Source: Dinochytrium kinnereticum
Lineage: Eukaryota; Chytridiomycota; Chytridiomycetes; Chytridiales; Chytridiaceae
Length of the DNA: 30,734 nt
Assembly: GCA_027604005.1 (NCBI GenBank)
Contig: JADGJT010000288.1
Coordinates: forward strand, 1 to 30,734
Reading direction: 5' to 3'
A program made the position numbers and the translations under genes. This document shows, piece by piece, positions 10,651 through 30,286 of this stretch; position 1 is the first letter of the stretch; every line of letters starts with the position of its first letter. The notes beneath the pieces were generated by a model that saw nothing but the letters and a program-made list of their open reading frames with translations, ran no database searches and had not been told where the DNA came from.

Positions 10651-11164
10651 AGGTGCTGCGTCGCTCGTTGGTCTTTGAAATGAAGCCGTGAATGAAGAAT
10701 GCTCTTCTTGTTTTCATCACACCGATTCAGCCTTGTTGTTATTGGCATGTTGTATTCGAAGCAATAATGAATGTTGACTGTGTGCTAATAATTGATAATG
10801 CTTCGATTCGTAGTGGGAGGGGGATGCTCTGGCATTTGAAATATTTTCAAACGCGAAACTTGATCAGAACAAGCTGGCGTTGCGTTACAGCGCAGTACAT
10901 CGTTCCACGGCCTTGCGACACTCTGTCATCAGTTGGGTGACGACGACTTTCCTGCCTGGCCAACAGGAGTGGCAAGTGTACGTTACGTGTTGACCTTGCA
11001 GGGTTGCAGCCGACTCGCCGTTCACTGCAGGCATCATCCATTCATTCTTCAATCAGTCCCTTGGCCTCTGCTGCTGCTGCTGCTGCGGCGACCTGGATCA
11101 GGCCTCGTACCAGTTGTCAAGAACAGACATCTCTTGGGTGTGGAAAGATCGCTGAGGACCAGCC
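10651..11164. other. Intergenic; possible unseen first exon of the next gene
   Basis: No clear gene is seen. A (CTG)n run lies at about 11068-11085. The next LRR gene lacks a signal peptide in the model given here, so a short 5' exon coding for one may lie in this stretch, spliced to the AG just before 11163. I could not identify it with confidence. Confidence 0.4.
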
Positions 11165-11981
11165 ATGACGGATTGTGAGCGCTTGACGGCTCTGTTCTAC
11201 CCCAATAATGCGCCTCCCCGGTGGTCAACGGCGGGTCCGAATGCATGCTGTGGATACCTCGGTGGTTTGAGCTTTGAAGGGGAGGACCATCGAGCTATCG
11301 AGTGCGATGGGAATAATCGGATTGTGACCATGTGCGTGGGCTTCCTCTTGTCTCCTCCTTGCCAGTTGATGTCTTGCATGCCCATTTGCGATCCTCACTC
11401 AGCTCCTCGGCTGATCACTTCATTTTCAGGTTCCTCAACAGGATGGGATTCACCATCCGGGTGGTTCCTGACCTGTCGTCGTTTTCGGCCCTCAGGAGGA
11501 TTGATCTATCAGGGAACGTCTTTAACTCTTTTCCGGATTCTCTGGCAGCAATTGCACCGTCCATTACCTACCTGTGAGTGGGCCTTAGGCTTATTGAGGC
11601 CGTTGATTTGTCTCAACTGCATGCCAACACTTATTATTATAATCGCAGGCGGCTGGAAGCAGGAACCATGCTGAATTCCCCCTTTCCGCAATCTGTTGGC
11701 GCAATGGTGAATCTGGAGCAGATGTTAGTTGGCATCGCTTGCTGATAAACGGTTGATTGCTCTGCTCTCGTTCTAATTATTTGACCTCAGGTGGATGAAC
11801 TCGCTGTTTGCTGGAGTCGCTCCTGATCTGTCAGGGCTTCAGAGGTTGAGGACCTGTAATCTTGATAGCAATGCAGGAATGTGCATCAACTACGTCAATA
11901 CTCAAGATTTCCTTAATGCTCAACCTCGCTCGTGCTTCAATGGATTTAGCAGCATGAATGCTGGAAGACCTTGTGCTGGAG
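11165..11981 (+). repeat. Single cap-LRR-cap module of the SAM-tailed receptor
   Basis: Exons 1-4 code for this module of about 192 residues. It ends in phase 1, as every module of the two neighbouring LRR genes does. The C-cap reads CINYVNTQDFLNAQPRSC. Confidence 0.8.
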
Positions 11982-14542
11982 GTTAGTGCTCTGGCGGTGA
12001 TTTCTTTCATCCTATGTGCTCACTGACTGTATCGGGTTTATGTTTACTTCAAACAGCAACCGCACGATATCCCGTATCGGGAGTTGTAAACCCTCCAATA
12101 TCACCAGATCCTCAAGTTCCGTCCAACCCTCAACCGCCCCCAAACACTCCCAATCCTCAAAATCCTCAAAACCCGGCTCAGCCTCCTCAGAACCCGATAA
12201 CAAATCCGAGCAATCCCAGTTTACCCACAGAAGCCCCCATCAACCCAGCCCTTCCAGGGGCTTCCGTTTCTCTCTCTACCAGATTTATTACTTTAGGAGG
12301 AGGTCAAGATCCTTCAACGCTTGGTCTTACGGATTCATCCGACGTCATCATCATTGTTCAGACCGCTGGTGACGATGGGAATCCGTCGTTACCCGGAGAT
12401 GGCGGTAATGGGGCTAATGGAGGAAGCAGTGGATCTGGTTCACGGACCTTACGACCCACTGCTACCCCGACTCAGGATTCTGGAACTTCCGCAAGCATTA
12501 TGACCAATACGGCTATAATTGTCCCTGTTGCAGTTGGCGTGATGGCCGCGGTCATCCTCTTTCCCCTTATAGCGTTCTTCATCGGTCGTTCGAAGCAACG
12601 CCGCCTAATCCGTGAAAGGGCTGCATCGGAGAAGGATGTGGAGTTGTCCAAGGCGAACATATCTATAACCGTCGCTGGCGTTTCAGATTCTGGGGATTCC
12701 GATTCCGGTTCTTCTTCTATGCTCGATGCCGGAGGGCTTCCTCTCAAGTCTCGAGTAGCTATGGCAGCAGATGAAGGTGGCTTGTTTGAAGGTGTCTCGA
12801 GCAATCCGCTTTATTCGAAAAGCAGAAGGTTGGGAGGCGGAGGTCCAGAGGATTCTGAACTTTTCCACGGAATCGGTATTGAGGATATGAATTTGAATAT
12901 AGGTGTCTTGACCGCTGATGTGGCTGGTATCGATAAGAAAGGCGAACCTGGCATCGTGGAGGTCCTACCCGGCAGTAGTGGCATTTCAGAGGGAGATTCT
13001 TCGGGCGGCCCTAGTCGTTCCCAATCCACTTCTTTATCTCCGGCTCACCGCATTGTTTCTGTAGCGGGTCTTCCCGTCCGGCGTCGCGTTGTTCTAAACA
13101 TCCCTAGCTTAACCGCAGGATCTGTGTCTGTTGTTACCTCTCCTACCATTATTCCATCCCCTGCACCTTTTGACCAGATCTCTTCACGTAAAACATCGGC
13201 CGGGCGCGTTCTTACAAAGCGATCAATCCCTTCCGTCGCGGGATCTGACTTGAAGCAGGAGGTGTCACTGTCTCCTGTTCCATCGTCAGCTTCTTTGAAC
13301 TCTAGACTGTCCGTGTCGCTTGAGTCTGCATACAAATGTGGCGAAGTAGATACACTACCTACGTCTGTGGTTAGAGATCATTCAGCAGATGATCTTGATG
13401 ATGATGGAGAAGAAGACGACGTGGTGGTGGATGTGATTGGAAAGCCTGTGGAATGGTCTGTGGATGAAGTCGTCATGTATTTGACTAGAATGGGAGTTCC
13501 AGACCATATTGCTGTCGCATTTAGAGGTATTGTACCTTTCCTTTTCGTTTCAGATTGTGTATCATATCTTTTTCGTATTGGGAGATGCTAATAAGCAAGG
13601 GTTTCCCTTTGATGCAGATCATTCCATCGACGGTCGAAACTTTCTGGAGCTCACAGCTGAAGACCTCGAAGCCGAGCTTAACCTACCAGACACGATCGTC
13701 ATCCCACCCAGCGCCGAATCTAACGAGGCGTTATCCTTGCCTCCTCAATCTGATACCCTTTCATCATATCCAACCGATAATGCAGGACCCTCTGAAGTCA
13801 CTGCCGTTTCCACGACCCATGTTACCCTTGACATTCATGCGACTGTTGTCTCTATTATTCAGGCGCTACGGACTTTGCAGAAGGAAGCTGAGGCGATTGC
13901 TCGTGCTGCTGAGGGCAGAGACGAGGAGATAAATGGGGGTGAGCATCAGGGTGAGGCAATAGTGCCACCACAGGTTTGGGAGGTCGAGCGGGTTTGCGAT
14001 TGGCTGGGGGATGTTGTTGGGGCTTCTGAAGAGGTTGTTGGCAAGTTTAGAGGTGCGTTCTGCTTGCATATTTTTTACTATTCTACGTTGTTCACACGCT
14101 CATCCCATTTATTTTGGTTATGTGTTGCCCTTATCATTCCACGTCGTTACTCTTCTCGTTATCAATGTGTTTTTGTTTTATTTTTTGTTTGTTTTTTGTT
14201 TTCGTTTTCTTTCTTTTCTTACCAACCTTTTGCCTTACAGCCAACCGCGTCACTGGCCAAAAACTTCTCAATCTCTCCGTCCAAGACATGCGTCAAGAGC
14301 TCAATATCCTTCCCTTTGGCATCCGTACCACAATCCACTCTGCAATCGCCCTCTTGCGCAGTGGAGATCCAGTGGCTATTTTAGGACGGACGGCGGGCAG
14401 CGCTGGCGCTGCAACCACCATTGCTGCCCTGACGGACGTCGGTGCAAGAACGGTAGGGAGCTCGGCGATGGGGAATGCGGCGTTTGGAAGAGGCGCAGTG
14501 TTTTCTGTTGTTCCGCCGCCGCCGTATCGGGAGGGATCCTGA
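11165..14542 (+). CDS. LRR receptor-like protein with transmembrane helix and tandem SAM domains
   Basis: The seven exons are 11165-11331, 11430-11573, 11649-11723, 11791-11981, 12057-13526, 13618-14052 and 14241-14542, giving 927 residues. Residues 1-192 form one LRR module: an N-cap with DC and ACCGY, plant-type LRRs (VVPDLSSFSALRRIDLSGN) and a C-cap with paired cysteines. A Pro/Asn-rich stalk follows (about 193-340), then a transmembrane helix (about 345-369) ending AFFIGRSKQRR. The cytosolic part is long and Ser-rich, with an acidic patch (DDLDDDGEEDD), SAM domain 1 (about 657-712) and SAM domain 2 (about 802-870). The C-terminus is VVPPPPYREGS, a PPxY motif. No kinase is present. SAM domains usually oligomerise or recruit other SAM proteins, so a signalling role is inferred. 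The start is uncertain: no signal peptide is encoded. Confidence 0.82.
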
Positions 14543-14926
14543 TTTGACCTTGTGTGTGAGAAATATATGGAGGTCTCTTTTCGAATGGCTGCTGTTGTTT
14601 TAAGATTCGCTGTTGCCCATGCAGCATACATGTATTTTAAGTTGTTTTGTTTCTTTGACCTTGAGCCAGCTGCCAACCTCCATTCTGCTCTGTTCGTTAT
14701 TCTGGCATGTAATGATAATTACAATTAAAGCTTAGAATATCTTTCAACATTTGAGGTGCGCCGTGTAGACAGCGTGTGTACGTTCCAATGAAATAGCGAT
14801 ATTGTTAGACACCCTTGGACCTTGTTTGACAAGGTGCAACGTTTGAGTCCACCTCAACAATACTTGAGTTTTTGGGACTCTTGGGAGGGTTTCAACGGTA
14901 GTTGAAGACGGCACTCATTGCCGGCG
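14543..14926. other. Intergenic, 3' end of one LRR gene and promoter of the next
   Basis: This is an AT-rich spacer between two LRR genes on the same strand. A small stem (ACCTTG with CAAGGT) occurs near 14818-14834. No gene is seen. Confidence 0.5.
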
Positions 14927-15796
14927 ATGATGACCAGCATAGGGGCCCTCGCGACGGCCGCCATCACTGCATCGTCGCCTGGAAGCATCCCTTCTGATTG
15001 CGCCATTCTCAAGGACCTGTTCTTCCCTGACACTGTACCGCCATGGGGCACTGACCTCGGCAGTGGATGCTGCGGATACAACACGAACAGGGTGGCGATC
15101 GCCTGTGATTCTGCATTAAAAGTAACCACTGCGTACGTTTCTTTCTCTTGATTTTTGCTGCTGTGGGATCCGAAGATCCCTCTCTTCTCTGCTCATTTAA
15201 TCGTCTCTATTGCTTTCATCGGATGCATGCTGATAGTACTAATGCCATTATTTCCACCCTCTCTTCATTCAATCCTGCAGTCGATTAACTTTCCTCTTCA
15301 CTGGGAATATTGGAATCGTCAACCGTGAACTACCCGATATTCGACGCCTGCAAAGCTTACGGGTTTTTGAGTGTGACTTTTGCGGATATTCGAGCGTCCC
15401 AGATATCTTTGAAGGTGTCCTGGCACAGAACCTCAACACATTGTAAGAAACTGTTCGACTCTTGAGCGTTGACTGAAAGTTGTTTCACCACCTGAAGCCG
15501 CCTTTATGGAGTGAATGCCCGAACCTCGTCATTCCCGAAGTCGATTTCGACTCTCACGAACCTGGCCACTTTGTAAGTTAAGCTGCTTGCATTATCTCTG
15601 TTAACGCTTACATTAAGATACATGCCGGACACGACGGGGCCTTTACCAGACCTGTCACGTTTGAGAAGGCTCACGACCTGCTCACTTGGACGATTTGCTC
15701 AGAACTGCATCGGATTTGTGGATAAGGATGAGTTTATAAGCCAGCAACCTGCAGCCTGCCGTGCGGGCATGAGGAGGATCCCAGTTTGTAGTGGAG
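14927..15796 (+). repeat. LRR module 1 of the plus-strand five-module gene
   Basis: The exons are 14927-15132, 15281-15442, 15498-15572 and 15618-15796. In this module the DC and CCG parts of the N-cap are fused into one exon. N-cap: SDCAILKDLFFP and SGCCGY. C-cap: NCIGFVDKDEFISQQPAAC. Confidence 0.85.
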
Positions 15797-18700
15797 GTGG
15801 GTAGTTCGCCACTTCCCTTTCTTTTTTATTAAACGTATAGTGCCGTTAGCATCGAGATATTATAGGCCGATTCCTGTCGATGACTGTTCAAAAGCTGCAT
15901 CTCTCTTCTTCAGTGAGTCCCTGAAAGAATTTCTTTCACTTGTATTGTGCAAAAAACAAAAAAGCATGAGCCTGATCGTAGATTACAGGCCCTACAACGA
16001 TACCGTGGCAAAACTGCTGCGGATGGAAAGGCCCAACACCCAGTACTCAGTTTATTGATTGCCTCCCAAATGGAGCCATCACCAAGTTGTTCGTATTGCC
16101 GATCGCCTAATTATGCCTCTGATTCTTCTAACCCTTGATAGATATTTACGCGGTATGCCTGTGTCTGCCGTTAGCCCTTATAGGGCTGTTCCTGATATTA
16201 GTGTATTCGCTTCTCTTGTTGAGCTGGACTTGCAAGGATGTGGATACAACAGTATGCCGGATATTTTTACGTCAAATATGATGATTTCTTACATGTAAGT
16301 TTGCTTTACCTGACAATGTGTATCGTTACATAATCCCTAACAATTATATGTGTGATCCTCTTTCGCTCTGGGACGGAGTAGTAATCTCGCAGGAAATTCT
16401 ATGCAAAATTCACTCTTCCCAACGAGCCTCGGGAGCCTTCCAAATCTTCGATTCATGTGGGTCTTTTATATCAACCCCTGGATGGGCTGGCCATAGTCAC
16501 TTTCCTTATTATCACGGCCTTCTCTGGTGGCTAATATCCTGACTGAAACTATTTCAATGCAGGCAACTATCGAGTACTCGCGGAATGGCCCCAAACTTCA
16601 AAAATGCTCCTGGTCTTCGCCGATGCTTTTTCGGCAGCAACCCTAACTTTTGCATTCCGTTCACGGACAAGGCAAATTATCTTGATGACCAGCCTTGGCC
16701 ATGTGTAGATACGTTACAAGCTCGCCCTGTTTGCGAGAGTAAGTGGCTGCATGCATTCTCGAAAATTTTCTGTGTTGTATAATCTTTTCATACATTTGAC
16801 ACTGATTATGTGTGCGTGCTTAGGTTCATCTGTTTATAAAGAGCTTCCGGCGCCATCTCCTCCCAATTCTCCGGATTGTGAATTTGTCGCAAAAGCTTTT
16901 TTCGGTGGTGGGTCATTCCACTATATCGTTGATATCTTTTCTTTTTTTGTTCAATCGACAAATGTGGGAACATCATCGTAACCTTTTCATAACGAAATGA
17001 AAGTGATCTCTGCGCCATGGCGAAATCGAACTTCGTGCTGTGGGTGGGAAAACGTCCCTGGATACTGGGTAACGGCCCGAAATGCGCAGGCTATCAAGTG
17101 CGATCAAGATCTAAGGGTCACAGAGATGTGAGCGCGCTTCTGTATTATATTGGTTTCATTTTTATTCTTCGTCTCTTCGTCTTTCGAGAATGCCACTATC
17201 TAATCCCTTAAATAGACTATTGTCGAACATGGATTTGGTAGGGGTCATCCCGGACCTTTCTCCTCTCGACCGGCTTGAAAAGCTAGATTTAAGCTTAAAT
17301 AAATTTACGGGAGTTACAGACTTCCTGGTAGGGAACATCACTTCGACCCTGCGGTTCATGTAAGTTTTTGATTTTGTAGCCTTCTTTCAGAACAAACCCC
17401 GTCTTATGCCGAAATCTTCTTTACGCAGGCGCATTGGGAACCCCTCAACCGTAAGCCTGATTCCCCAGTCCATTTCCCAAGCGCGAAATTTACAAGTACT
17501 GTAGGTGCACGTCACTCTTTTGATCTTATTAATGTAAAAATTTCTAAGATGGATGGATGGACCTTTCATTGGTCCGTTCCCAGACCTCCGCAATCTTACA
17601 GCCTTGAATATTTGTAGGCTGGACGAGCAAAAAACCTGCATTCCGTTTATCAATGCGGCTGAGTTTAGGGCAGCGCAGCCTTTACCATGTCAGGGACCAG
17701 CTTTGGAATCATTGCCAGTGTGTTCAGGAGGTCCGTGACACTATTCTTAAGCCTTTTTATACTTTTGTGTTATTTAGTCTAATGTCTGCCTTCTTTCAAA
17801 ACCTGTAGCTGTACAGGTTTACTCTTCAGAACCTATCGATTCGGGCGACTGCGCGAAAGTAACCAATCTATTCTTTGGTAGGCCGGAATTAATTTGGAAA
17901 GCATCTTTAGAGTTAACGCGTAAACAAAACAGCTGAGAGAGCCCCTCCGTGGTCACCAGGCAAAGCCTGCTGCGGATGGGTGGGATCGGCAAATGGGGTC
18001 TACAGGGGCGAGAATATCCAATACATTCGTTGCAATTCAGATGGGTTCGTAGTAGGCATGTAAGCAACATGTATGCCTCCTTCTGTGGCATTGAAACAAA
18101 AGTACAAGCTGACTTTCTCACAGCTCACTTTGGCGAATGGCATTAGCAGGAACGTTGCCGAATTTGTCTGATCTCCAACACTTGCAATGGCTTGAGCTCG
18201 CAGATAACAGTTATACTCATATTGTTGACGAGCTAGATGGCCTTTCTCCAACTCTAAAATACCTGTGCGTTGTAGTCTTCTCATCTCGATGAATAGGATA
18301 CTTACTTTTGATGCTTTTTATAGTTCCATCCACGACTTGAAAAACGCAGGCCTACCGTTTCCGCAGTCCATATCAAAGCTTGTTAATCTTGAAATTCTGT
18401 AAGACTTTTGCATGCTTCTTAAGCAGCTTAAATCTAATCTGTTAAAAAGCCTCATCTATACGACCTTTACTGGACCGGTCCCAAACCTCTCAAATCTTAC
18501 CAGTCTTACCACCTGTGCAATTTTCAATCCGACATGCATCCCGGCCTCGGATAAGAAGAGGTACATTGAAACCCAGCCGAGGGCTTGCTGGGAGCATTTA
18601 GAGAGGATGCCGATTTGTAGGGAATGTGCGTGTATTGTTTATTGAGTTACTTTTCACGCACCAGCGGCTTGAAGCTAATAGTCTCTTAATCTATAGATCT

Positions 18701-20228
18701 GTCGGATTGCGATAAACTTTCGGGCATGTTCTACCGTAAGTTATCTGCTTCAGTCTTTTTCATATTTTATATACACTCATTGTAAATTCTCTGCTGCTGA
18801 AATTATAACATAATAACAATCATTTAGCGGCTGGTGAGGAACCATGGAAAAATAATTCGACCTGTTGCGGATGGCAACACATCCCAGGATGGTTCTGGGG
18901 AGCGAAAAATCTCCGCAGGATCGACTGCGACCCACAAGGCAGAATTACAAGCATGTAAGTGTTTCCTATGCTATCAATCTGTGGCTTCCTCTTTAGCGAG
19001 GATTAATAATATCCTCCTCACTTCTCAGCATGCTGTTTGGCATGTACTTGACAGAGTTTTATTTAAGTGGGCCAATGCCAGACCTCTCGGTATTTTCGCA
19101 GCTCCAGGAAATCGAGTTGGCAGAAAATTTTTTCACTGAAGTGGGAGACTTTTTTGAACCGTTGGCTCCTACTTTAACATATTTGTAAGTTTCCCGCTCC
19201 TTTTTTTCACTTTTCTTTCCAGACTTCACCTTCCTCTATTTTAACGCGATCGTTCCAGGAGCCTCCACGAGAATCGCGTGGCTAAATCTAACTTTCCCCC
19301 ATCCATTGCAAAATTAGTGAACCTGAAGGAATTGTAAGTTGCTGCCATTACGCGATACTATAGTAATGGAATATTATCGCTAACATCTTTCTATCTGTAG
19401 GCTCTTATATAATCGATTTGGTGGTCCGTTACCCGATCTTTCTCCTCTCACATTTTTGGAAGTATGCGTGATCAATCAGAATCCCGAGTTATGCATTCCA
19501 TTTGTGAATAGAGAGACTTTCTTGGATGTTCAACCTAGTGCCTGCCGTGATTCTTTACACGTTATTCGTGTTTGTCCTGAAGGTGAGACTCACGAAGTTC
19601 CTACCTCCCATTCTTTTAATCTCTGATATTGAACGCATTTACAGCAATAGCAACATTCACCCCGTTACCACGCTCAACATCTGAAGCACTTGCATCTACA
19701 ACGACCACCATCTCCATCACAGTATCGACCGCCTCCGCAACCACCCCTGCGGCTATACCCTCAATAATCAACATTTCAAGCACTATTGCTACCACCACTA
19801 CACCCTTGGCAACCATCACCCCGCCACCTCGGGATCCAAACTTTCCCTCTATGATCGCAGACGTTTTTATTCTTTCTCAAGATCTCTCAGACCCTGAACC
19901 ACCACCCTTCCTCCCCAGAACCTTCACAATTTTCGTTTCTTCTAACCTCAACCCATCCCGCACTCTGACTGAATTGTCTTTCACATTCCCAATCTCGCCA
20001 CCGTCCCAAGGGGATACGACCAGCGTGGCTTCACCCAAAAATAGCGAAAATGGATTGCCAATGTTTACTTTTTTGACTATTATGGGCCTGGTTGGTACTG
20101 TTGCGATGTTGTCGACGATTGGGGCTTTTTTTGTTGGAAGATATTATGGGAGGGTTGATGTGGGTGGGGCTTCTGTCGATAGGCAACTTATGGCGGACGT
20201 GGGTGTTTCCACGGACATGCGTTCCTGA
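14927..20228 (+). CDS. Five-module LRR membrane protein, plus-strand member of a mirror pair
   Basis: The 25 exons (listed under the module entries; last exon 19645-20228) join without a stop into 1183 residues. A weak hydrophobic start (MMTSIGALATAAITASS) may be a signal peptide. Five modules follow, ending at residues 207, 399, 600, 796 and 989. Each has an N-cap (DC...FF, then PW...CCGW...C), two to three plant-type LRRs with L-x-G-x-[IL]-P-D-L, and a C-cap (C-I-P-F...QP..C...PVC). A Thr/Ser-rich stalk leads to a transmembrane helix (about 1129-1153) and a tail of about 30 residues (GAFFVGRYYGR ... DVGVSTDMRS). No catalytic domain is visible. It probably binds an external ligand or partner at the cell surface; the ligand is unknown. 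The start ATG aligns exactly with that of the minus-strand paralog (206-nt first exons). Confidence 0.85.
15841..16738 (+). repeat. LRR module 2 of the plus-strand five-module gene
   Basis: The exons are 15841-15912, 15989-16088, 16142-16294, 16382-16456 and 16563-16738. N-cap: DDCSKAASLFF and IPWQNCCGWKG. C-cap: FCIPFTDKANYLDDQPWPC. Two acceptors here (at 15988 and 16381) were chosen because only they keep the repeat frame. Confidence 0.82.
16824..17730 (+). repeat. LRR module 3 of the plus-strand five-module gene
   Basis: The exons are 16824-16904, 17004-17127, 17216-17359, 17429-17500 and 17549-17730. N-cap: SPDCEFVAKAFFG and APWRNRTSCCGW. LRR: LVGVIPDLSPLDRLEKLDLS. C-cap: TCIPFINAAEFRAAQPLPC. 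Confidence 0.85.
17809..18625 (+). repeat. LRR module 4 of the plus-strand five-module gene
   Basis: The exons are 17809-17877, 17933-18059, 18124-18264, 18324-18398 and 18450-18625. N-cap: GDCAKVTNLFFG and PPWSPGKACCGW. C-cap: TCIPASDKKRYIETQPRAC. Confidence 0.85.
18697..19582 (+). repeat. LRR module 5 of the plus-strand five-module gene
   Basis: The exons are 18697-18735, 18828-18954, 19029-19184, 19259-19333 and 19401-19582. All five lengths (39, 127, 156, 75, 182) equal those of module 5 in the minus-strand paralog. N-cap: SDCDKLSGMFYR and STCCGWQHIPGWFWG. Confidence 0.87.
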
Positions 20229-20621
20229 TTAGGGTGTTTTGTTACGTTATTTATGATCTTGTGTTTTGTATATGTAGGCAGAATGTATATTTTGGAAGGT
20301 TGTAGAGCTACGGGAGGAGAAAAAGAGATTAAATAGATAAATAAATATATTAGCTTTCATACCGCTTAATCGTAATCGTTCCTGTATGGTTATTTTGGCA
20401 TGCCCATATGTATATGCATCATCTATTCGCATAATCGCATAAATAGCAGTTTTCATGAGTAGGTTTGACAGTATCACTCTATTACAATGCTATTATAGCC
20501 GATATCATTTTGATTAATCAAGGGCTTTGGGGCGATAGAAAAATAAATAAATAAATGAATTAAGCCCCGTCTAAATTAGAAAATAGTGGCAAAAGGCAAC
20601 CAAAATACCCATTCAGCCCCT
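20229..20621. other. Convergent spacer between the mirror-image LRR genes
   Basis: The two LRR genes end 393 nt apart, tail to tail. The spacer is AT-rich, with AAAT repeats near 20335-20350 and 20540-20562. It is the centre of the inverted duplication. No gene is seen. Confidence 0.6.
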
Positions 20622-23600
20622 TCAAACCTCCCGATCAGTAGAAACCTGCATGTCCGTCATAAGCGGCTTCTTAACCTCTAAGACCGCCAACCTCCCCAGG
20701 TACCTCCCAACAAAAAACGCCCCAACGCTCCCAAGAACAGCAACAAGCCCCAACACAACCACTACCACTAATAAGGGAACGCTAGCCTCCCTGGAAACTT
20801 CATTCGACTCTGCAGTTTTCCCACCATCACCCCCCTCACCGTTCGGAGAAGGATTGGTAGTTGATGTAGAGGAAGGTTGTCCAGAGTTTTGCTGGATAAT
20901 TGTGCGTGTTCTACCAATGTTTGAGAGGGTCACAGGGAGGGTCTCTGGAAGTAGAGTAAAGGTTATTTCGGAAGCTTCTTGAAGCTCTGCGGAGATATCT
21001 GGGACCATGGAGGGGAAGCGGGGATCTCGAGGTGGGTCCGTTATGCTTGCTGGTGGGGAAGTGGTGGTTGCTGTCGATGTGGCTGTAACTTCTATAGCGG
21101 TAGAGGTGGTGGTGATCGTAGTCTGACTCTCCGTCACCTGCGTTGTCGTTCGCTGCGGTGGTACGTATGTCGCCGAGGCTATATGTTTTATGAAGCATTA
21201 TCAAAAAAGTTTCATTACCAATTTGAGGTCAACTCACCGTCAGGACAGACTGGAAGTGAATCCACATTTGGTTGACAAGCTGGCGGTTGAGCTTCCCAAA
21301 ACACCTGCTTGTTCACAAATGGAATGCAGAGCTCCGAGTTTTGATTCACAACACATTCCTCAAGTTGGGTTAAGGCAGAGAGGTCTGGGATTGGTCCACC
21401 GAAACGATTGAATACATGCCTGGTATTCGATATTAAGAATAAAGTGGAAGGATATAGGACTTACAGTTCTCGGAGGTTGGTTAATTTAGAGATGGATGGT
21501 GGGAACATAGTTTTCACCAGACGGTTTTCACGTAGATCCCTAGGACGATGTCAGGCATCTTATTTCAACCACGCAAATAGATACTCACAGAACCTTCAAA
21601 GTTGGCGCCAACCCAGCGTAAAAATCACCCGCATTGTAGAAATAGTTTTCTCCTAGGTTAACCTGCTCCAACCTGGAAAACACAGAAAGGTCCGGAATTG
21701 TGCCGCTCAGATAATTTGGCGTAATGTACATGGCAAAGAGTTTGCTATGTGGATAAAATGAGCAAACGGAGGTTTGACATGAGCATCCGAGCACACAAAA
21801 ACTTACAGAACGGTGATCCGACCGTCAGCATCACATTCGATACGTCTCCAGTTCTCTGCCCCCCAAAACCATCCAGGATCGTGCTGCCACCCACAGCACG
21901 TAGGACGTCCAGCCCAGGGCTCCAAACCCGCGGCTGATGATTTTCGTTTGTTGTTTTGGGTATATATAATATATGTAATAAAAGATAATAATAAACATCG
22001 GTGAGTGAGTGCCAGTGAAAAAGCATATTGCAGGAAATATTGATATCACTATTTAGCAAATGAGAGTCACAAGAAAACTACTTACGATAAAACATTCCCG
22101 AAAGCTTGTTGCAGTCACTCTCGTCTATAAATCCCAGGTTAGGAAAATGCCAGAAAACCACAAGCAAAAAAGAGAAAAAACCAAGAAAATCAAAAAATAA
22201 GTGCCCCCACATTCTCTGCAAATAGGCATATTAACTAAATGCTCCCTACAAGCCCTTGGCTGAGTGCTAATATATGCGGCCCTATCCGAGGCAGGGATAC
22301 ACGTCGGGTTAAAGATCGCGCAAGTCGACAAGGATGTCAAGTTAACCAGATTCGGAATCGTCCCGGTGAAGGTTGGGTGCACGAGGCTGCAGAGGCCAAA
22401 ACAATGAAATAAGCAAGCCAGCAAGTAAAGAGTAAGTCGAGGGATTAAAAAGTTATCGCTATGACGACGTACAGGGTTTCTAGGTTAATTAGCTGAGAAA
22501 TGGATTCCGGGAAAGGGAGTCGACGACCTCTCAAATCGCGAATAGACCTTTTGTTTTTTTGTACAGTTAAGGGCAAGGTTATCAGCCTCTGAGCCACCAC
22601 CTGAAATGCAAAAAAAAAAAAAAAAAAAAAGGAAGCAAAAAAGCACCGAAAATTACTCACAAATACTTGATCGTCCCAGAAACAGCCTCTAAATCCTTTA
22701 TGTCACTAAAGCTATTATCCGAGAGCTCTAAATGGCGCAACCGTGTTAGGGACGACAAGTTTTGGACGGTTCCGCTCAAACCCATCCTCCAAAACGATCT
22801 ATTAGCCGCCGCCACAACAAATTAATGAAAGGATTCATTTTAAAAAAGGAACGAAAGAACACTGAGAAAGGAAAAAAAGTGTAAAGGCACAATAAAATCT
22901 TTACTCACATATGCGTGACATACGCCTCCCCATCACACCTCACAAATTGCAGACTCTCTCCTCTGAAAACTCCGTCGGGTCTTCTGCTGTTCCACCCACA
23001 GCAATTGGCGTTAGGGAACCATGGCGGGTTATTGTCGGCTATTTCAATAATTAGCAACGCTTATGAAATAGAAAAGGACGGGGTAAGGAGGAAAGTATGC
23101 AACTTACGAAAAAAGAGTTGAGCAACCCTCGAACAGTCCTCGGGAACGATAGGTTTAAGAAGGTAAACATCAGTGGCTACAAATTACAAGAATCAGAAAT
23201 CAAATCATTCGGCAAGGTTTTCATAAGTGAACACCCTTTCCACAAACACCAACAGTATCGAAACTCACCCCCAACACAAGTTGGCAACGCATTTAAACTG
23301 GCCCCTTGACATGCCGGAGGCTGAGCGGCCCTAAAATCTGCAGCATTCACAAACGGGATACAGGTCACTGAATTCATTAAAGTACATCGATGGAGTGACG
23401 TTAAGTTTCTCATGTCTGGAAGTGGGCCCGGGTAAGGAGTGTCCAGCCATCTGCAGATTATAATGAGCCAGGAATGTGAACTAAGGTTTAGAAAAGGGCC
23501 TGCTTACAGAATTTCCAGGTTGATCATTTTAGAGATAGATTGTGGAGCCGCACTTTGCATGCGTGGGTTTCCAAGTGCTCTGAAACCCCATTAAAGGTCA

Positions 23601-26097
23601 GAAACATTAGATTTTCCAAAGTCAGAAGTAAACGACTCACAAAAACTTCAGGGAAGTCGTCAAATTGCCCCCAAAAACGTCAACCGTAGACGAGAACCTA
23701 TTACTCCCAATATCAAATTTCTCAAGCTTCTCGAGTTGTGTGATGTTGGGGATAGCGCCACTTAGGCTCATGGATGAAAAGGATCTGTTTTTTGGGAATC
23801 AAAAAGTTAAAAAGATGAGTGATGCACTTACAATTCGGTAATGCGAAGGTCTTTATCGCACTTGATATATTGGAGGTTTTTTCCGAACAGCCAAAAGCCT
23901 GGAGACCCTTCGAAACCGCAGCAGGAGCCTCGGGATCTCCAAGGGGCGGTCGCAGCGCCTGCGAAGTAGGAAAGCCGTTAGAGGCGAGGACTGTGAGTCG
24001 CTAGGCGGCAGCAGTCACACACTTACCTCCGAAAAAGGCAGTCTCCACAAACTCGCAATCTGGGGAATTTTGAGGAATAACCCCTGGGGTCTCCTTATAA
24101 ATCATCGCGCCTTAAAAAAGAAAACCATTAGACGAAATTTTAAGTTTCTCAATACTATAATAATAGAAGGAAATATAGCCTTACTGGGACAAACCGGCAC
24201 ATTCTGTAGACCCCCCACACATGCAAAAGGCTGATCATTCAAAAAATTCTCCTTGTCTACGAATGGTATACAAAACGAAGGGGATCCGAAAGAACATTGA
24301 GTGATTAATTGTGAGTTTTTGAAGTTTGGTGCGGGATTTTGCGTTCCTGAAATTCGCCTGGTCATGATTTAAATCAAATGGGTTACAGGTATTCCTTTTG
24401 AATGGGAGGTGGGTCTTACATTTGTTGTAGGTTTGGAAGGTTGGCGAGACTAGTCGGGAAGGGTGACCTTTCCAAACTATTCTGAGCCAGGTTGCTAGAA
24501 TAAAAAGCGAAAAAAGATGTCAGCGATGTATTCGGTTTAGTAACTCTTCAGTTCCATATACATTCCCTGCCGATAGCCAAAAAAAAAAAACAAACCCAAA
24601 TCTCGACCACTCACACAATAGTCAGCCCTGTCATACTTGCTTTAAACGTATCCTGTACACTAGTATACCCACATCCCTGGAGATCGAGCTCTCGAAGAAA
24701 TGGGAATACGCTCACATCCGGTACAGCCCTGGTAGGGCTCGCGTTCGACACCGGCAGACCACGAAAGTATCTATATTCAAAAAAAAGGAAGAAACAACGT
24801 TAGGGCGAAGTCACTTTAAAAGGAAGGTTTTCGAAATAAACTTAACAGTTTCGTAACGGCTCCATTGGGCAGACAATCTATTAATTGATTCGCAGCGCCT
24901 TTCCAACCACAACAAGTTGACGCTTTCCACGGGATTGTTGTAGGTGCTATGTTTCTGGTTAAACAAAGGCTACCGAGGAACAAAAAAATAATGTCAGTTG
25001 CTTACTGAAAAACAGAGCCGCGACTTTTGCACAATCATCCGAAGGAGTTTGCTTGTAATAGCTCGTCGCTATAAAATCATATCCAAAAAATCATTATCAA
25101 AGAAAAAAAATTTAGAGGTTTATATAAATATCCATATCTGCTATTTAAAGTAGAAGAAAGGCATTGAACAATACCAATAGAACCAATAAAACAGACTATC
25201 ACAAACCTCCAGGACAAACAGGAAACCGGCTCATCTGTCCTCGGCAAACAGCAGGCTGAGCATTAACAAACTCATCACGGTCCAAAAAGTTGATACATAT
25301 TTGTGTGTATTTTCCTAACCCGCACGACGAGAGTTTCGCCAACTTAGACAGGTCTGGGACAGGGCCAGACATATCAGGCATTGTCCTGTTTTAAAGGTAC
25401 AGAGTATAATTAGACGAAGGTGAATGTTTCCAGTTCGAAGCGGACGAAAACACGTTGAAAAAACGTGGTGAGTCGCTTACAGGCTAACAAGGTTGACAAG
25501 ATTACCGATTGTGCTGGGAAACAAATAATTACGGGCGTTAACGCCAGCCATTCGGCTATCAAGTTTGAAGCAAAAGAGGAGAGAAAAGCGTTAGTGGCTA
25601 AAATCAATGCAGCAAAGAAAGCCGAACAAGAAAAGAGACGATGATCTCACAAAGTGTTGAGATTATCTGTAATAGGACCGGTAAATATGTCCGATGAAAT
25701 ACGAGTATAGCTACAAAAGTCACATCGAAACTCCTTCAACATCTCCAGTCGTCTAAGATCTGGCAGGGCTTCATCAATGACCCCAATCCTCCCCGTGAAA
25801 GTTTGGGAGAGCTCGCTGTCATCAAGGAAACAGAGGTCAAATATTAATAATCAAGGCATGATAACATTGAAAATCTCAAGGAAAGACTCACGCAACAGTG
25901 ATCCTGCCCGCAGCATTGCATCGAATCAACACCCTATTAGAATTGTATTCACAACATGCAGAGCTCCTCAGATCTGTGCCCCAGGGCGGGATAGTCTCCG
26001 GGAAGAACAGGTCCTTCAGAACAGCGCAGTCCGATGGGACGATGGGAGTTTGCAGAGGCGGCAAGGGGACGCCAGGGGCCGTTGTCGAGAGGGCCAT
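20622..26097 (-). CDS. Five-module LRR membrane protein, minus-strand member of a mirror pair
   Basis: The 25 exons (first 25892-26097, last 20622-21178; others under the module entries) join into 1174 residues. Five modules end at residues 208, 397, 600, 796 and 989, almost the same positions as in the plus-strand paralog. Each has the N-cap cysteines (DC, CCGW), plant-type LRRs such as FTGTIPNLVNLTSL, and the C-cap CIPF...QP..C. A Thr-rich stalk (TTTSTAIEVTATSTATTT) leads to a transmembrane helix (about 1123-1146) and a tail of about 30 residues ending DMQVSTDREV. The N-terminus MALSTTAPGVPLPPLQTP is a poor signal peptide. An upstream exon coding for one is possible: ATG at 26343 with an in-phase donor and a TAG acceptor just upstream of 26118. 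That is not proven. The role is inferred to be surface recognition. Confidence 0.85.
21238..22124 (-). repeat. LRR module 5 of the minus-strand five-module gene
   Basis: The exons are 22086-22124, 21807-21933, 21589-21744, 21465-21539 and 21238-21419. N-cap: SDCNKLSGMFYR and TCCGWQHDPGWFWG. C-cap: LCIPFVNKQVFWEAQPPAC. Exon lengths are identical to those of module 5 of the plus-strand paralog. Confidence 0.87.
22211..23176 (-). repeat. LRR module 4 of the minus-strand five-module gene
   Basis: The exons are 23108-23176, 22909-23038, 22661-22798, 22473-22547 and 22211-22386. N-cap: EDCSRVAQLFF and NANCCGW. C-cap: TCIPASDRAAYISTQPRAC. Confidence 0.85.
23269..24110 (-). repeat. LRR module 3 of the minus-strand five-module gene
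   Basis: The exons are 24027-24110, 23832-23958, 23641-23784, 23508-23579 and 23269-23450. N-cap: SPDCEFVETAFFG and APWRSRGSCCGF. C-cap: TCIPFVNAADFRAAQPPAC. Confidence 0.85.
24185..25068 (-). repeat. LRR module 2 of the minus-strand five-module gene
   Basis: The exons are 25006-25068, 24847-24946, 24615-24770, 24420-24494 and 24185-24357. N-cap: DDCAKVAALFF and STCCGWKG. LRR: RAVPDVSVFPFLRELDLQGC. C-cap: FCIPFVDKENFLNDQPFAC. One donor is the weak GTTAAG. Confidence 0.82.
25207..26097 (-). repeat. LRR module 1 of the minus-strand five-module gene
   Basis: The exons in gene order are 25892-26097, 25651-25815, 25481-25555 and 25207-25385. N-cap: SDCAVLKDLFFPETIPPWG and SACCEY. C-cap: ICINFLDRDEFVNAQPAVC. 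Exons 1, 3 and 4 have the same lengths as in the plus-strand paralog. Confidence 0.85.
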
Positions 26098-26589
26098 TTG
26101 ACGGTGTGAGCCAGGATGGGCTACCAGGCGTGTGCGACGAAGACATGGCGTCTCTGCCGTTGTCACACACGTCCCCGAGACGCCGAGCTCCAATGGAAAC
26201 AGATGCGCACCGTTCGGCAAGTACCACCGGATCTACAACTCTAAAGCACAGTTTTCTTTTTGCCTGAATCGGATTGGAATCGGACATGTAAATAAGCGCA
26301 GAAGTCGGCCGAGCAAGCGTTTCCACCACACCTTGAACGCAACAAAAGAGGGTCCAATTCATAACAGAAGTATTATCATGATACCACGGCGTTCGCATTT
26401 TGCCGAGATGAGGGCCGTGTGGACAGGCAGATACTTTTCATTTCTCTAGGACTTGCAGCGACTAGAGAGAGGACGTGAGAGGAAGGAATTTCACCTTGCC
26501 CGTCGTCGGTCAACTTTCAACAACCCCTCACAAGCGTCTGTTATCGATGGACAATTTTTTCTGCACTTGACAACAAGTCACCGCAGAAG
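26098..26589. other. Divergent promoter region
   Basis: This spacer separates the minus-strand LRR gene from a plus-strand membrane protein gene. It may hold a short 5' exon of the LRR gene (ATG at 26343 on the minus strand). No other gene is seen. Confidence 0.45.
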
Positions 26590-27691
26590 ATGCTTGAACG
26601 TATCCTCGCGTTAACCTGCACAACAATCTACGCCTTCATCCTCTTCACCACATCGGCATTCCTCATCCTCCTCCCGTCCATACGCCTCCTCCTCAGCTCC
26701 CCATCCCCCTCTGGTCTTCTTCACACCATCTTCCGCCCCATCCCTCAGCCCGTCCTCCTCCTCCTTCACTACGCAAGGTCGATTTCGTTTCTCAACCCCA
26801 CACCACCGGAAGCATCAACCCCACTAAAGCCCGTGTCGAGTGATGGAAAAGGCGCTAAGAAGAAGAAATCAAAAAAGGATTCGAACCCTGCTGATGCGAT
26901 GATGAAGAAGAAGGTCATGCTGCAGGAGGCTAAGGGGTTGGGATTGGCGGCAAGAGAGGCTACGAGATTTGATTTGCCACCGAGGGTGAGGCCATCTGAG
27001 CAGTTTAGGGATTTGTGCTTGCTGGCGTTGTCGGTTTTTGTGGTTACTTATGTTCTCATGTGGATGGCAAGGCTGTTGTTGCTGACGGGGTCGGGGTGGG
27101 ACGTTGTGACGGTAATGTTGAATTTGGGGCATGCGGTGAGGATATTGTTTCTTGTGTTTTTTGTTAAGTTTTTTTTGATCTTGTTTATAATAGTTGTGTG
27201 ATGGATTTGCACGTACTTAGGTTTTAAATCTTTATTAAACATAATAGGGGATTCTCTATCTTGCCGTCAAATTAACATGCACCTTCCACCCTCCTAAGGC
27301 CGCCGACTTCAACCTCTTTCCAACCTCGGAGTCAATAACAACTTCAGAAGCCGTCACCAGCAACCTCCCCTCAGCTCTGCCTCCCTCAACTTCCCACGCC
27401 TTTCTCCAAACAACCCGCGGTATCGCTATCTACACCGTTCTGATCTATCCGCAACTCTGTTCAGACCTGATGCCCCTCAATTGGCTTTCAACTGCACAAT
27501 TTGTTGGAGGATTGATAGGTGGAGCGCTCGGGAGTTGCGCTATTTATGCGATGGTTGCTGTGCAGGTTTATGAGTACGGGTGTTATAGGGAGTTGAGAAA
27601 GATTTGGCAGGCTCGGGAAGTGCAGCAGATGGAAGTTGATGTTGGTGATGTGAAGGAGCAGGTGAAGTTGGCGATGCGTAAACATAAATAA
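26590..27691 (+). CDS. Multi-spanning membrane protein of unknown function
   Basis: I do not recognise the family. The exons are 26590-27135 and 27299-27691, joined in phase 0 over a GTGAGG...AAG intron, giving 312 residues. Hydrophobic segments lie at about 8-32, 55-70 (weaker), 139-165 and 247-270, with another around 223-235. A lysine-rich stretch (GKGAKKKKSKKDSN) lies between the first and second strong segments, and the C-terminus is charged (VKLAMRKHK). Topology suggests an internal-membrane or plasma-membrane protein. If the intron is kept, the frame runs to a stop at 27199-27201 and adds about 20 very hydrophobic residues instead of the second exon. The ATG is the first in the frame. 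Confidence 0.7.
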
Positions 27692-28870
27692 ATAACTTTG
27701 TTGGACTTGAGTATTTGATAATGTTTTCAATGTTAGTTCAATTTCTCTGTACGGAATTGCACCAGTTCTGGTATCCGCAAATGTTCGCAAAACCGGCTGG
27801 ACAGGGAGAAGCTGGCGCACTGCTCACAATGTACAAAGAGAAAAAGAAGGTACATTGTGAAGTTCTCTCTTTGGTCCTCCATGACTCAGCCTTGACCGTC
27901 ATAGAAGAGAACCAACCACATTTGCAACGCCGTCATATATCTCGAACGTACTTCGCGATCCAAGGGCAGAACCCGCTCCTCTTTTGCTGAGGCAAGGTTT
28001 TTTGTGTGCTGTACTGCCAAGCGGGTCTCTCACAGTTTCATCATATAGTAAAAGGGAAAACGAATAACAAAACTGAACCCAGTCGGGAATCACACATACC
28101 TGTCGGATTTCATGGCTCTCCCCGCTCAGTCTAGCTGGAGGGGGTCGGCCAAGAGCCACAAGAACATCCCCAACGGGTAGAAGTTGGAAGGGGACGTGTA
28201 ATAAATAAAAAGGTGTAAAGAACCGACAAAGATGGAAGAAGAAAGAGGGAAACTGAAGGGGTAAAAGTGGAAGCTGAAACAATACAGAACTCCATATACA
28301 CTGACACTCTACCGTGAAACTACAGCACGGTCCTGGGGCCCCGAGGATTCCAAGCCTTTGGGGGCAGCCGGGTGGGAAGCCTTTCTATCCGCCGCTTATG
28401 AACTCGTTTCAAACCGTTGTGGTAGTAAAAGATGTTTAGTTGTTAGTCTTTTCTCTATGAGGGGTTTTTGGTTACATGGGGTGGATTTGTAGTATCTTCA
28501 TCTTTAATGTATTCCCCCTTTACTTCCCTGTGTCTTTTACGCGTCACTTGTTAGAACTCTGTTCTTACGCGACCTTCTTTACGTCTTCTAACACGTGCTC
28601 TTGTTTTTAATCCTTTTATTCCTTTTTCACGTGTGGGGAATTGATTTTCAACATTGTGGGAAGAAGGGAATTCGGGTGAAAACGGGGGAGATTGTTAGTT
28701 GTTGTTTCAAGAGAAGTGGTGTAGTGGTCGAGACCTGTCAAGTGGTTTGGAATAGAAATCAAGGTCTACGCATTCTATCCGCTATCACTAAGACCATTTC
28801 TATTCCCACAGTGGTGGTTGCGTCCTTGTTATCGTACCTGATTAAGTCTTCATACTTATTCCGCTTCGCT
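27692..28870. other. Intergenic / 5' flank of the Gag-like frame
   Basis: No convincing gene is seen. It contains a perfect hairpin at 27824-27860, a smaller stem pairing 28113-28119 with 28152-28158, and two CACGTG sites near 28591 and 28628. The frame of the Gag gene stays open upstream of its ATG back to 28595, but with hydrophobic, non-Gag sequence. I found no long terminal repeat matching the other side of the Gag frame. Confidence 0.45.
27824..27860. repeat. Perfect 11-bp inverted repeat
   Basis: TCACAATGTAC (27824-27834) and GTACATTGTGA (27850-27860) flank a 15-nt purine-only loop. It lies about 130 bp after the stop codon of the membrane protein gene and could form a hairpin in its 3' transcript or be a protein-binding site. 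Confidence 0.8.
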
Positions 28871-30286
28871 ATGAGTCTCCCGTCCTTGTCAGTTGTCTTA
28901 GGGGAGGTGACAATTCCCTCCTTCGATGGCTACAATGAGAGGAAGTTCCGTGTCGACGTTGCTCGTATGGTTTCAAGGATCAGATTGTCGGGGACCTCAC
29001 CATCCGATGAGGCCTTGGTCGAGTTCATTATCGAGAACTGTTTCTTGGGTTCAGACCATGTGAAGAGTCTGATCAAGGACTGGTGTACCTCGTTGGAGGC
29101 TTTGAAGACCCCGATCACCCTCGCTGGTCTCTTGTCGTTCATTAAGGACACCTACCACGAGAACAATCCGACGGTAACTACGGAATCCCTCTTGGAGTTA
29201 GCCAGAAGCTACGTCGACCTTCCCGTCACTGATGCCAGTTGGGAGGGCATTGTGTCAGCGTTTACGACCCTCCGAGAGAAGATGATTCTGCGTCCTTTGG
29301 ACAGCGAGCTAGTGAAGTGGGTTTTCTCACCTATGACTGAGACTATGAGAACTGGCGTCATCGATTGGATACAGCGTACTCGCATTGAGGACGCTCAAAC
29401 GAAGGAGATGGCGCGCCTTTGGAAGTATACTGAAGAGGGTCTGGAGTCTATCAGACTTGCGGGACCTAGTGGATTGTCAGGCGTCTCCCTGCCGACCCAA
29501 GGTACTGCTGTTCCGACTGACACTGGACCCATCAGTCTTTCCGAGCTCGAGGTTGCCATCAGGAAACATGTTCGCACTACTGGACCGCTTCACCGCTTTT
29601 CTGAAGGCATCAGCTCTACGCCCGCTCCGGCTCTTAACGGCTTCGACCAGAACGCCATTGATTCTCTCGTTAGAGGCCACAAGGTTGCCCCTGCTGGCAC
29701 GGCCCCTCGAGGTTCAGTCCCTTTCTCTTTTGATACGTCTGCGGCATCTAGCGGCGGCGGAGTCCCTATAATTACCAATAGGTTCAAGGATGCCGCGGTC
29801 GATGAGCTGTCGCAGATGATGGAGGGACTGAAACTGTTTAGGCAAACCGTCGCAGAAAACACTAAGGTTATCAAGGAAGAATCAGCATCTCGAGTCAGCT
29901 CTAAGCAGCTCAAAACGTCTTTTGCTAAGCCTCGTCAGCCGCCCTCATCCGGAGATAGTTCTGGCGTTGTTTCGGCAAATTTTGAAGTGTCGTCTCTTGT
30001 GGGTTCTAGTCAGATCCCTAATGTTCGCTGTTTTTATTGCGGTCTTTCTGGCCATTACAAGGACCATTGCGAGATCGTTGAACAGGACATTTTGGACGGG
30101 GCTAAGGTTATGATAGGTCGGGACAGGAAGTTGCGATGGGTGGTTGAAGACAAGAAAACAGGCTCTAGGGTTTTGGGTGAGGAGGTGAAAGGACATAGGG
30201 ACGGGGCTAGACGTAACGTAGTCGAGGTGGAGTTAGGGTTACAAGGGCCTCCCCTCCCGGTTATGGTCATGGTTTTGTGTTACTGA
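28871..30286 (+). CDS. Retrotransposon Gag-like protein with one CCHC zinc knuckle
   Basis: Gag proteins package element RNA into particles. This frame of 471 residues starts at the first ATG (MSLPSLSVVLGEVTIPSFDG). It has an all-helical capsid-like region (about 10-200), a Ser/Pro linker, and a zinc knuckle C-x2-C-x4-H-x4-C (C387, C390, H395, C400). A segment with IVEQDILDGAKVMIGRDRKL follows, resembling the region after the knuckle in fungal Ty3/Gypsy Gag proteins. No protease, reverse transcriptase or integrase follows: only about 450 nt remain and they carry no such frame. It is therefore a solo Gag, either a decayed element or a host-retained copy. The open, undamaged frame is notable. 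Confidence 0.75.
   Translation: MSLPSLSVVLGEVTIPSFDGYNERKFRVDVARMVSRIRLSGTSPSDEALVEFIIENCFLGSDHVKSLIKDWCTSLEALKTPITLAGLLSFIKDTYHENNPTVTTESLLELARSYVDLPVTDASWEGIVSAFTTLREKMILRPLDSELVKWVFSPMTETMRTGVIDWIQRTRIEDAQTKEMARLWKYTEEGLESIRLAGPSGLSGVSLPTQGTAVPTDTGPISLSELEVAIRKHVRTTGPLHRFSEGISSTPAPALNGFDQNAIDSLVRGHKVAPAGTAPRGSVPFSFDTSAASSGGGVPIITNRFKDAAVDELSQMMEGLKLFRQTVAENTKVIKEESASRVSSKQLKTSFAKPRQPPSSGDSSGVVSANFEVSSLVGSSQIPNVRCFYCGLSGHYKDHCEIVEQDILDGAKVMIGRDRKLRWVVEDKKTGSRVLGEEVKGHRDGARRNVVEVELGLQGPPLPVMVMVLCY

What the first reader, a model, noticed from the sequence alone, without database searches (positions are those of the whole stretch)
14927..26097. Mirror-image pair of five-module LRR genes with matching exon maps
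Two 25-exon genes lie tail to tail. Module ends fall at residues 207/208, 399/397, 600/600, 796/796 and 989/989. Many exon lengths are identical; the whole of module 5 is 39, 127, 156, 75 and 182 nt in both. Module n of one gene resembles module n of the other (for example DKLSGMFYR and CCGWQH in module 5 only) more than its own neighbours. A five-module array was thus built first and then copied as an inverted duplication. Repeating the full N-cap + LRR + C-cap unit five times in one chain is unusual, since LRR proteins normally have one cap pair.
Basis: partly seen in the sequence, partly recalled or inferred. Interest (0 to 1): 0.8.

Follow-up and report, generated by a model that had tools for sequence, protein, structure and literature searches.

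The report
Paired five-domain LRR receptor-like genes, chytrid
A chytrid fungus carries two old sister genes, lying tail to tail, for membrane proteins whose outer part seems to string together five capped leucine-rich-repeat domains; this matters because fungi were thought to have almost no receptors of this kind.

Summary
The window is a whole contig of the chytrid Dinochytrium kinnereticum. Two 25-exon genes, G1 (14927-20228, +) and G2 (26097-20622, -), lie tail to tail; each reads as one chain of five N-cap+LRR+C-cap modules, a Ser/Thr-rich stalk, one hydrophobic helix and a tail of 28-30 residues. Splice phase matches at 24 of 24 junctions; 18 of 25 exon lengths are identical, the rest differ by multiples of three. 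Cognate modules are 54-63% identical, other pairs 28-40%. Trees pair modules by number and clustering by gene is rejected. The array therefore predates the gene duplication, which is old: synonymous sites near saturation, introns unalignable, coding sequence under purifying selection. Capped LRR cassettes in tandem have precedents (Slit, four; an unnamed, presumably bacterial protein here, about ten), but three protein searches named no fungal relative outside this genome. The genome also has single-module LRR-TM-SAM proteins, one next door. Most likely the pair are receptor-like surface proteins that signal through SAM-bearing partners, a fungal parallel to plant RLPs. Function is inferred: no signal peptide was found, no RNA-seq was at hand and no structure could be predicted.

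The parts
14927..20228 (+). G1: 25-exon gene, 1181 aa, five LRR modules + stalk + TM + 30-aa tail
20622..26097 (-). G2: 25-exon paralogue, 1174 aa, five LRR modules + stalk + TM + 28-aa tail
   Evidence: public model P0001 = HDU67_005257
14927..15796 (+). G1 module 1 (exons 1-4; aa 1-207)
15850..16738 (+). G1 module 2 (exons 5-9; aa 208-396)
16824..17730 (+). G1 module 3 (exons 10-14; aa 397-598)
17809..18625 (+). G1 module 4 (exons 15-19; aa 599-794)
18697..19582 (+). G1 module 5 (exons 20-24: 39,127,156,75,182 nt; aa 795-987)
19645..20228 (+). G1 exon 25: Ser/Thr-rich stalk, hydrophobic helix (aa 1131-1151, window 20073-20135), 30-aa tail
   Evidence: mean hydropathy 2.00 over 21 aa
25207..26097 (-). 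G2 module 1 (exons 1-4; aa 1-208)
24185..25068 (-). G2 module 2 (exons 5-9; aa 209-397)
23269..24110 (-). G2 module 3 (exons 10-14; aa 398-600)
22211..23176 (-). G2 module 4 (exons 15-19; aa 601-796)
21238..22124 (-). G2 module 5 (exons 20-24: 39,127,156,75,182 nt; aa 797-989)
20622..21178 (-). G2 exon 25: stalk, hydrophobic helix (aa 1126-1146, window 20771-20709), 28-aa tail
   Evidence: mean hydropathy 2.87 over 21 aa
11165..14542 (+). G0: neighbouring single-module relative, LRR module (aa 1-192) + hydrophobic helix (aa 346-366) + two SAM domains, 7 exons, 927 aa

Best explanation
G1 and G2 are old paralogues encoding single-pass membrane proteins of the LRR receptor-like (RLP) type. SHOWN by sequence: each chain is five homologous cassettes (N-cap, about five LRRs counted by eye, Cys-rich C-cap; each starting at a phase-1 intron from module 2 on), a Ser/Thr-rich stalk, one hydrophobic helix and a 28-30 aa tail with a conserved end (LMxDxxVSTD) but no recognised signalling domain; the cassettes multiplied before the gene duplicated; the two coding sequences have diverged under purifying selection. 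INFERRED: the cassettes stand outside the cell as a jointed rod with several binding surfaces; ligand binding is relayed by pairing with single-module LRR-TM-SAM proteins of the same family (G0 next door, C553 elsewhere), whose SAM domains would supply the cytoplasmic assembly, as plant RLPs rely on a partner kinase. The two copies probably differ in ligand.
For: Architecture and phases. LRR Pfam families over cut-off in G1 (LRR_14, LRR_8, LRR_4) and G2 (those and LRR_1). One top hydrophobic segment in each, next best 1.15 and 1.01. Tails of 30 and 28 aa fit the 20-30 aa of plant eLRR-RLPs (PMC3914901, passages). Eight Cys are invariant in all 11 window modules, which fits extracellular caps. 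Purifying selection: pN 0.297 against pS 0.799 over 1148 codons. G0 carries the same module with a helix and two SAM domains. C553 has module, helix and SAM. Introns lie at homologous places in the 11 window modules. Trees and AU tests.
Against: No convincing signal peptide. A script over 1.8 kb upstream gave 0 candidates for G0 and G2, 10 for G1 and 1 for C553; those listed (8 of the 10, and the 1) need introns of 216-294 nt, longer than any of the 54 modelled (45-188), and the G1 ones lie just 3' of G0. N-terminal hydrophobicity (best 9 residues) is 2.10 in G1, 1.68 in G2, 0.52 in G0 and 1.13 in C553. Pfam recognised no N-cap family (LRRNT_2). The stalk-helix-tail part is the least conserved (pN 0.422). 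There are no ligand, expression or interaction data. An adhesin role fits the same anatomy. Partnership with SAM proteins rests only on shared modules and proximity.
Confidence: 0.5

Rival explanations
1. Surface adhesins rather than receptors: five capped LRR cassettes on a Ser/Thr-rich stalk hold the zoospore or rhizoid to a substrate or host surface, with no signalling.
For: Tails of 28-30 aa without a recognised domain; long Ser/Thr-rich stalk, the least conserved part together with helix and tail (pN 0.422); an architectural parallel, P0068, has PF00395 in its precomputed Pfam list, which I recall as the SLH surface-layer domain.
Against: Short blocks near the membrane and in the tail (PPRDPxFPSM, GAFFVGRYxGR, LMxDxxVSTD) are kept between copies that are 56% identical overall and suggest an inside function; single-module relatives carry SAM domains.
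Confidence: 0.3
2. The cassettes are separate short genes and the long chains are an artefact of joining exons.
For: No RNA-seq was available. The public model of G2 starts inside exon 3 and lacks the end of exon 5, exon 6 and exon 23. No near-identical protein for G1 was among the hits (checked).
Against: Module-boundary junctions keep phase 1 in both genes, no module from 2 on begins with Met, and there are no internal stops. The public model P0001 joins the end of module 1 to module 5 independently.
Confidence: 0.05
3. Cognate modules look alike because of later gene conversion between the two genes, not because the array came first.
For: pS is somewhat lower in modules 1-2 (0.742, 0.698) than in 3-5 (0.842-0.914).
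Against: All modules are near or at synonymous saturation, and cognate introns are no more alike than non-cognate ones (mean 0.616, n 24, against 0.617, n 552), so no recent conversion tract is visible. Conversion would also need the same modular register to exist beforehand.
Confidence: 0.04
4. Intracellular or secreted soluble LRR proteins (the hydrophobic helix not being a true anchor).
For: No convincing signal peptide for any of four family members.
Against: Helix of mean hydropathy 2.00 and 2.87 followed by G-R-Y-x-G-R; eight invariant Cys per module; G0 and C553 share the layout.
Confidence: 0.1

Closest known systems
Plant LRR receptor-like proteins, e.g. the inverted pair Ve1/Ve2 of tomato (PMC3914901, passages)
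   Same: LRR region, one membrane helix, short tail without signalling domain; closely linked, inversely oriented paralogues. The best PDB matches of the module profile are plant LRR receptor kinases (best 60 of 353 shown).
   Different: Ve1/Ve2 have a signal peptide and two LRR regions parted by a non-LRR island; that plant RLPs have one cap pair is recalled. Here five cassettes, no signal peptide found, no LRRNT_2 hit.
Slit (animals)
   Same: Several LRR domains in series in one chain: four, D1-D4 (PMC5807052, passages); that each has its own caps is recalled.
   Different: Slit is secreted and has EGF, laminin-G and cystine-knot domains; Pfam found only LRR families in G1 at E<=1 and, over cut-off, in G2.
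Tandem LRR cassette proteins of unnamed, presumably bacterial origin (P0068, P0002, P0003)
   Same: N-cap + LRR + C-cap repeated in one chain: a motif scan counts 10 N-caps in P0068 and 9 in P0003; five are visible by eye in P0002, where the scan caught 3.
   Different: Profile comparison with six P0068 cassettes joins the LRR core only, not the caps (columns 66-160 of 215). Membrane helices were not looked for in them. Common descent of the array is not indicated.
LRR-TM-SAM proteins of the same genome (G0, C553)
   Same: Same module and a membrane helix; C553 shares the N-cap phase-1 intron of modules 2-5.
   Different: One module instead of five; long cytoplasmic part with two (G0) or one (C553) SAM domains.
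Fungal LRR receptors of Soanes & Talbot 2010 (PMC2939053)
   Same: LRR domain plus one TM helix, their definition (section 5 read).
   Different: They accept five fungal examples in four species, none with another predicted domain; I did not see those sequences.

Membership tests
LRR receptor sensu Soanes & Talbot 2010 | at least one LRR Pfam domain over cut-off | tested here: met
   G1: LRR_14 45/40, LRR_8 38.5/27, LRR_4 36/27 bits; G2: LRR_14 56.2/40, LRR_4 56.2/27, LRR_8 54.7/27, LRR_1 29.5/20.6. They used three older LRR models, of which only PF00560 (LRR_1) is among these; it is below cut-off in G1 (15.7/20.6).
LRR receptor sensu Soanes & Talbot 2010 | single transmembrane helix | tested here: met
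   hydropathy only: one segment at 2.00 (G1) and 2.87 (G2), next best 1.15 and 1.01; no TMHMM available
Plant-type RLP | short cytoplasmic tail without signalling domain | tested here: met
   30 and 28 aa; no domain (G1 at E<=1; G2 at E<=0.1)
Plant-type RLP | signal peptide | tested here: inconclusive
   no convincing candidate in G1, G2, G0 or C553 (N-terminal hydropathy); no SignalP on hand
Plant-type RLP | plant N-cap family LRRNT_2 (PF08263) | tested here: not met
   no hit in G1 at E<=1, in 0 of 11 modules at E<=1, or in G2 at E<=0.1
Plant-type RLP | partner receptor kinase | not testable with these tools
   needs interaction data
Slit | four LRR domains followed by EGF, laminin-G and cystine knot | tested here: not met
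   five LRR modules; Pfam finds LRR families only in G1 at E<=1
LRR-TM-SAM family of Dinochytrium | homologous LRR module | tested here: met
   G0 module 31-35% identical to the ten modules; C553 27-44% to the nine modules given to (modules 1 of both genes left out there)
LRR-TM-SAM family of Dinochytrium | cytoplasmic SAM domain | tested here: not met
   none in G1 at E<=1 or G2 at E<=0.1

The most novel reading that the evidence does not exclude
This chytrid has its own LRR cell-surface sensing system, in a kingdom surveyed as nearly lacking LRR receptors: short-tailed five-cassette binders (G1, G2) working with single-cassette LRR-TM-SAM transducers, where SAM assembly takes the place of the kinase or TIR domain of plants and animals.
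Probability: 0.25. Interest if true: 0.75.

Novelty: new variant of a known kind. Interest (0 to 1): 0.48.

Why it matters
A 2010 survey (PMC2939053, section 5) found no LRR-receptor genes in 43 of 49 fungi and accepted five examples, none with another predicted domain. If G1/G2 and the LRR-TM-SAM proteins are displayed at the surface, at least one early-diverging fungus does have such receptors, built differently, and the question of how fungi sense other organisms becomes testable in a zoosporic species. The exon map is also a clear record of a cassette bounded by phase-1 introns multiplying inside one gene, followed by duplication of the gene.

Tried and rejected
Signal-peptide exons upstream of four genes: nothing convincing (details under evidence against). 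Prokaryotic promoter/terminator scan of 20100-20800: 3 promoter-like (2.1 expected) and 0 terminator-like sites (0.5 expected), uninformative for a eukaryote. Codon pattern for C-C-G-W in the genome: 103+112 matches against 45+43 for the reversed pattern; protein searches of the genome, which score only the best candidates, show the window genes, C553 and weaker LRR loci, so the pattern count alone does not mean a large cassette family. Gene conversion: disfavoured. Bacterial origin of the caps: not supported, since only the LRR core aligns. Nearest single-module relative of the array: unresolved; C553 with module 5 is not rejected (p 0.33) but not shown, and C553 with G0 is not rejected either (p 0.28). 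Paper searches: chytrid + leucine-rich repeat: 50 papers, 25 listed; one followed up, PMC2939053; Dinochytrium kinnereticum: one, on CDKL kinases; none; one, soybean GWAS; six; 27, five listed. Papers not followed up were judged by title and abstract start. Passages of PMC10199209 on Slit2-N were seen and not used. The library holds open-licence papers only.
Full report
What was checked. The window is contig C288, 30,734 bases, of a 22.4 Mb genome in 558 contigs. A public protein from a contig of that length, HDU67_005257, names the organism as Dinochytrium kinnereticum, a chytrid placed by NCBI in Chytridiales.

Gene models. I marked exons by hand and a script assembled them. G1 (+, 14927-20228) and G2 (-, 26097-20622) each have 25 exons and no internal stop, 1181 and 1174 aa. 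They lie tail to tail with 393 bases between the stops. Splice phase agrees at 24 of 24 junctions; 18 of 25 exons have the same length and the other seven differ by multiples of three. All 54 introns of G1, G2 and G0 are GT-AG.

Modules. The ten modules and the single module of G0 (11165-14542) align end to end. Twenty-one columns are invariant, eight of them Cys. Introns lie at the same alignment columns: 90, 145 and 170, phase 2, in 11 of 11; a fourth, in the N-cap at column 43 (44 in one), phase 1, in modules 2-5 of both genes but not in module 1 or G0; and modules 2-5 start at a phase-1 intron. The unit is therefore bounded by phase-1 introns. C553, a single-module gene elsewhere, has the N-cap phase-1 intron, lacks two of the phase-2 ones and has one of its own (exon lengths).

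Order of events. Cognate modules are 54-63% identical; every other pair among the ten is 28-40%, and G0's module is 31-35% from all ten. The 11-row tree gives all five pairs starred support. With C553 added and the N-terminal tails trimmed, four pairs remain starred and A5+B5 drops to 82/86, which weakens only module 5. Trees that hold modules together by gene are rejected (p 2.3e-7 and 1.1e-4). The order in which the five modules arose is not resolved. The gene duplication is old: pS 0.80 (modules 3, 4 and 5 beyond correction), pN 0.30, codon-position differences 398/310/724 over 1148 codons; the tail part is less conserved (pN 0.42); cognate introns are no more alike than non-cognate ones. 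In 10900-27000 the only repeats of 40 bases or more were five inverted pairs within the genes, so inverted duplication and duplication followed by inversion cannot be told apart.

Membrane anatomy. Each protein ends in a Ser/Thr-rich stalk, one hydrophobic segment and a tail of 30 or 28 aa, with short blocks conserved between the copies. No convincing signal peptide was found for any of four family members. This is the main gap in the surface reading.

Relatives. Three protein searches (57, 100 and 6 hits) returned, as named fungal proteins, only D. kinnereticum's own (P0001, P0157, P0158). No near-identical protein for G1 was among the hits. In its own genome the module is found in the window and in C553, and weakly at C150, C165 and other LRR loci (best candidates only). 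Several loci combine LRR, hydrophobic helix and SAM. G0 and C553 are full models. C313, C544 and C110 rest on separate ORFs: LRR_8 matches of 36.9, 25.5 (below the cut-off of 27) and 28.0 bits, helices, and SAM on joined exon halves. C52 rests on an LRR match below cut-off (22.7), a SAM match just over it (21.2 against 20.5) and a helix.

Is the architecture new? LRR domains in series are known in Slit, with four (PMC5807052, passages). A simple N-cap motif scan of the 162 proteins held gave ten copies in P0068, nine in P0003, three in 8 proteins, two in 9, one in 25 and none in 118; it under-counts, since five are visible in P0002. Profile comparison of the fungal modules with six P0068 cassettes joined only the LRR core. 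So the kind of architecture is not new. I saw no report of it in a fungal membrane protein in the listings (open-licence library; one search listed 25 of 50). Soanes & Talbot 2010 (section 5 read) found no LRR receptor in 43 of 49 fungi and accepted five examples without further domains.

Mechanism. Plant eLRR-RLPs have tails of 20-30 aa, and Ve1 binds the receptor kinase SOBIR1 through its C-terminus (PMC3914901, passages). By analogy I think it most likely that G1 and G2 bind ligands outside and rely on partners inside, the SAM-bearing relatives being the natural candidates. The Ve1/Ve2 locus is also an inverted pair of such genes. All of this step is inference; an adhesin role is the main rival.

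Noticed in passing
window 11165-14542; L056 (C553) 6437-4041; L062, L061, L065, L066: A family of LRR-TM-SAM proteins in this chytrid: G0 with two SAM domains, C553 with one, C313, C544 and C110 with LRR, helix and SAM in neighbouring ORFs, and C52 on weaker matches.
   Followed up: partly
window 20622-26097: The public model of G2 (HDU67_005257, P0001) starts inside exon 3 and lacks the end of exon 5, exon 6 and exon 23; no near-identical protein for G1 was among the hits.
   Followed up: yes
C553 9244-9354 (-): A second SAM half on the C553 contig, upstream of the C553 gene, suggests another relative there; HDU67_008573 (P0158) is a partial protein with helix and SAM from a 9,995-base contig.
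   Followed up: no
window 28595-30286 (+): 563-aa ORF with a CCHC zinc knuckle by eye (CFYCGLSGHYKDHC), perhaps gag-like; no Pfam hit at E<=0.001.
   Followed up: no
window 4932-6353 (+): BMT5-like rRNA methyltransferase domain (71 bits) followed by a C2H2 finger match below cut-off in one ORF.
   Followed up: no
window 7218-7685 and 9650-10423 (+): Aldo/keto reductase and alpha-galactosidase (melibiase) pieces.
   Followed up: no
window, both strands: AATAAA occurs 38 times against 20 expected (0 of 100 shuffles reach it); three overlap in a short AATA run at 20542-20555 between the two genes.
   Followed up: no
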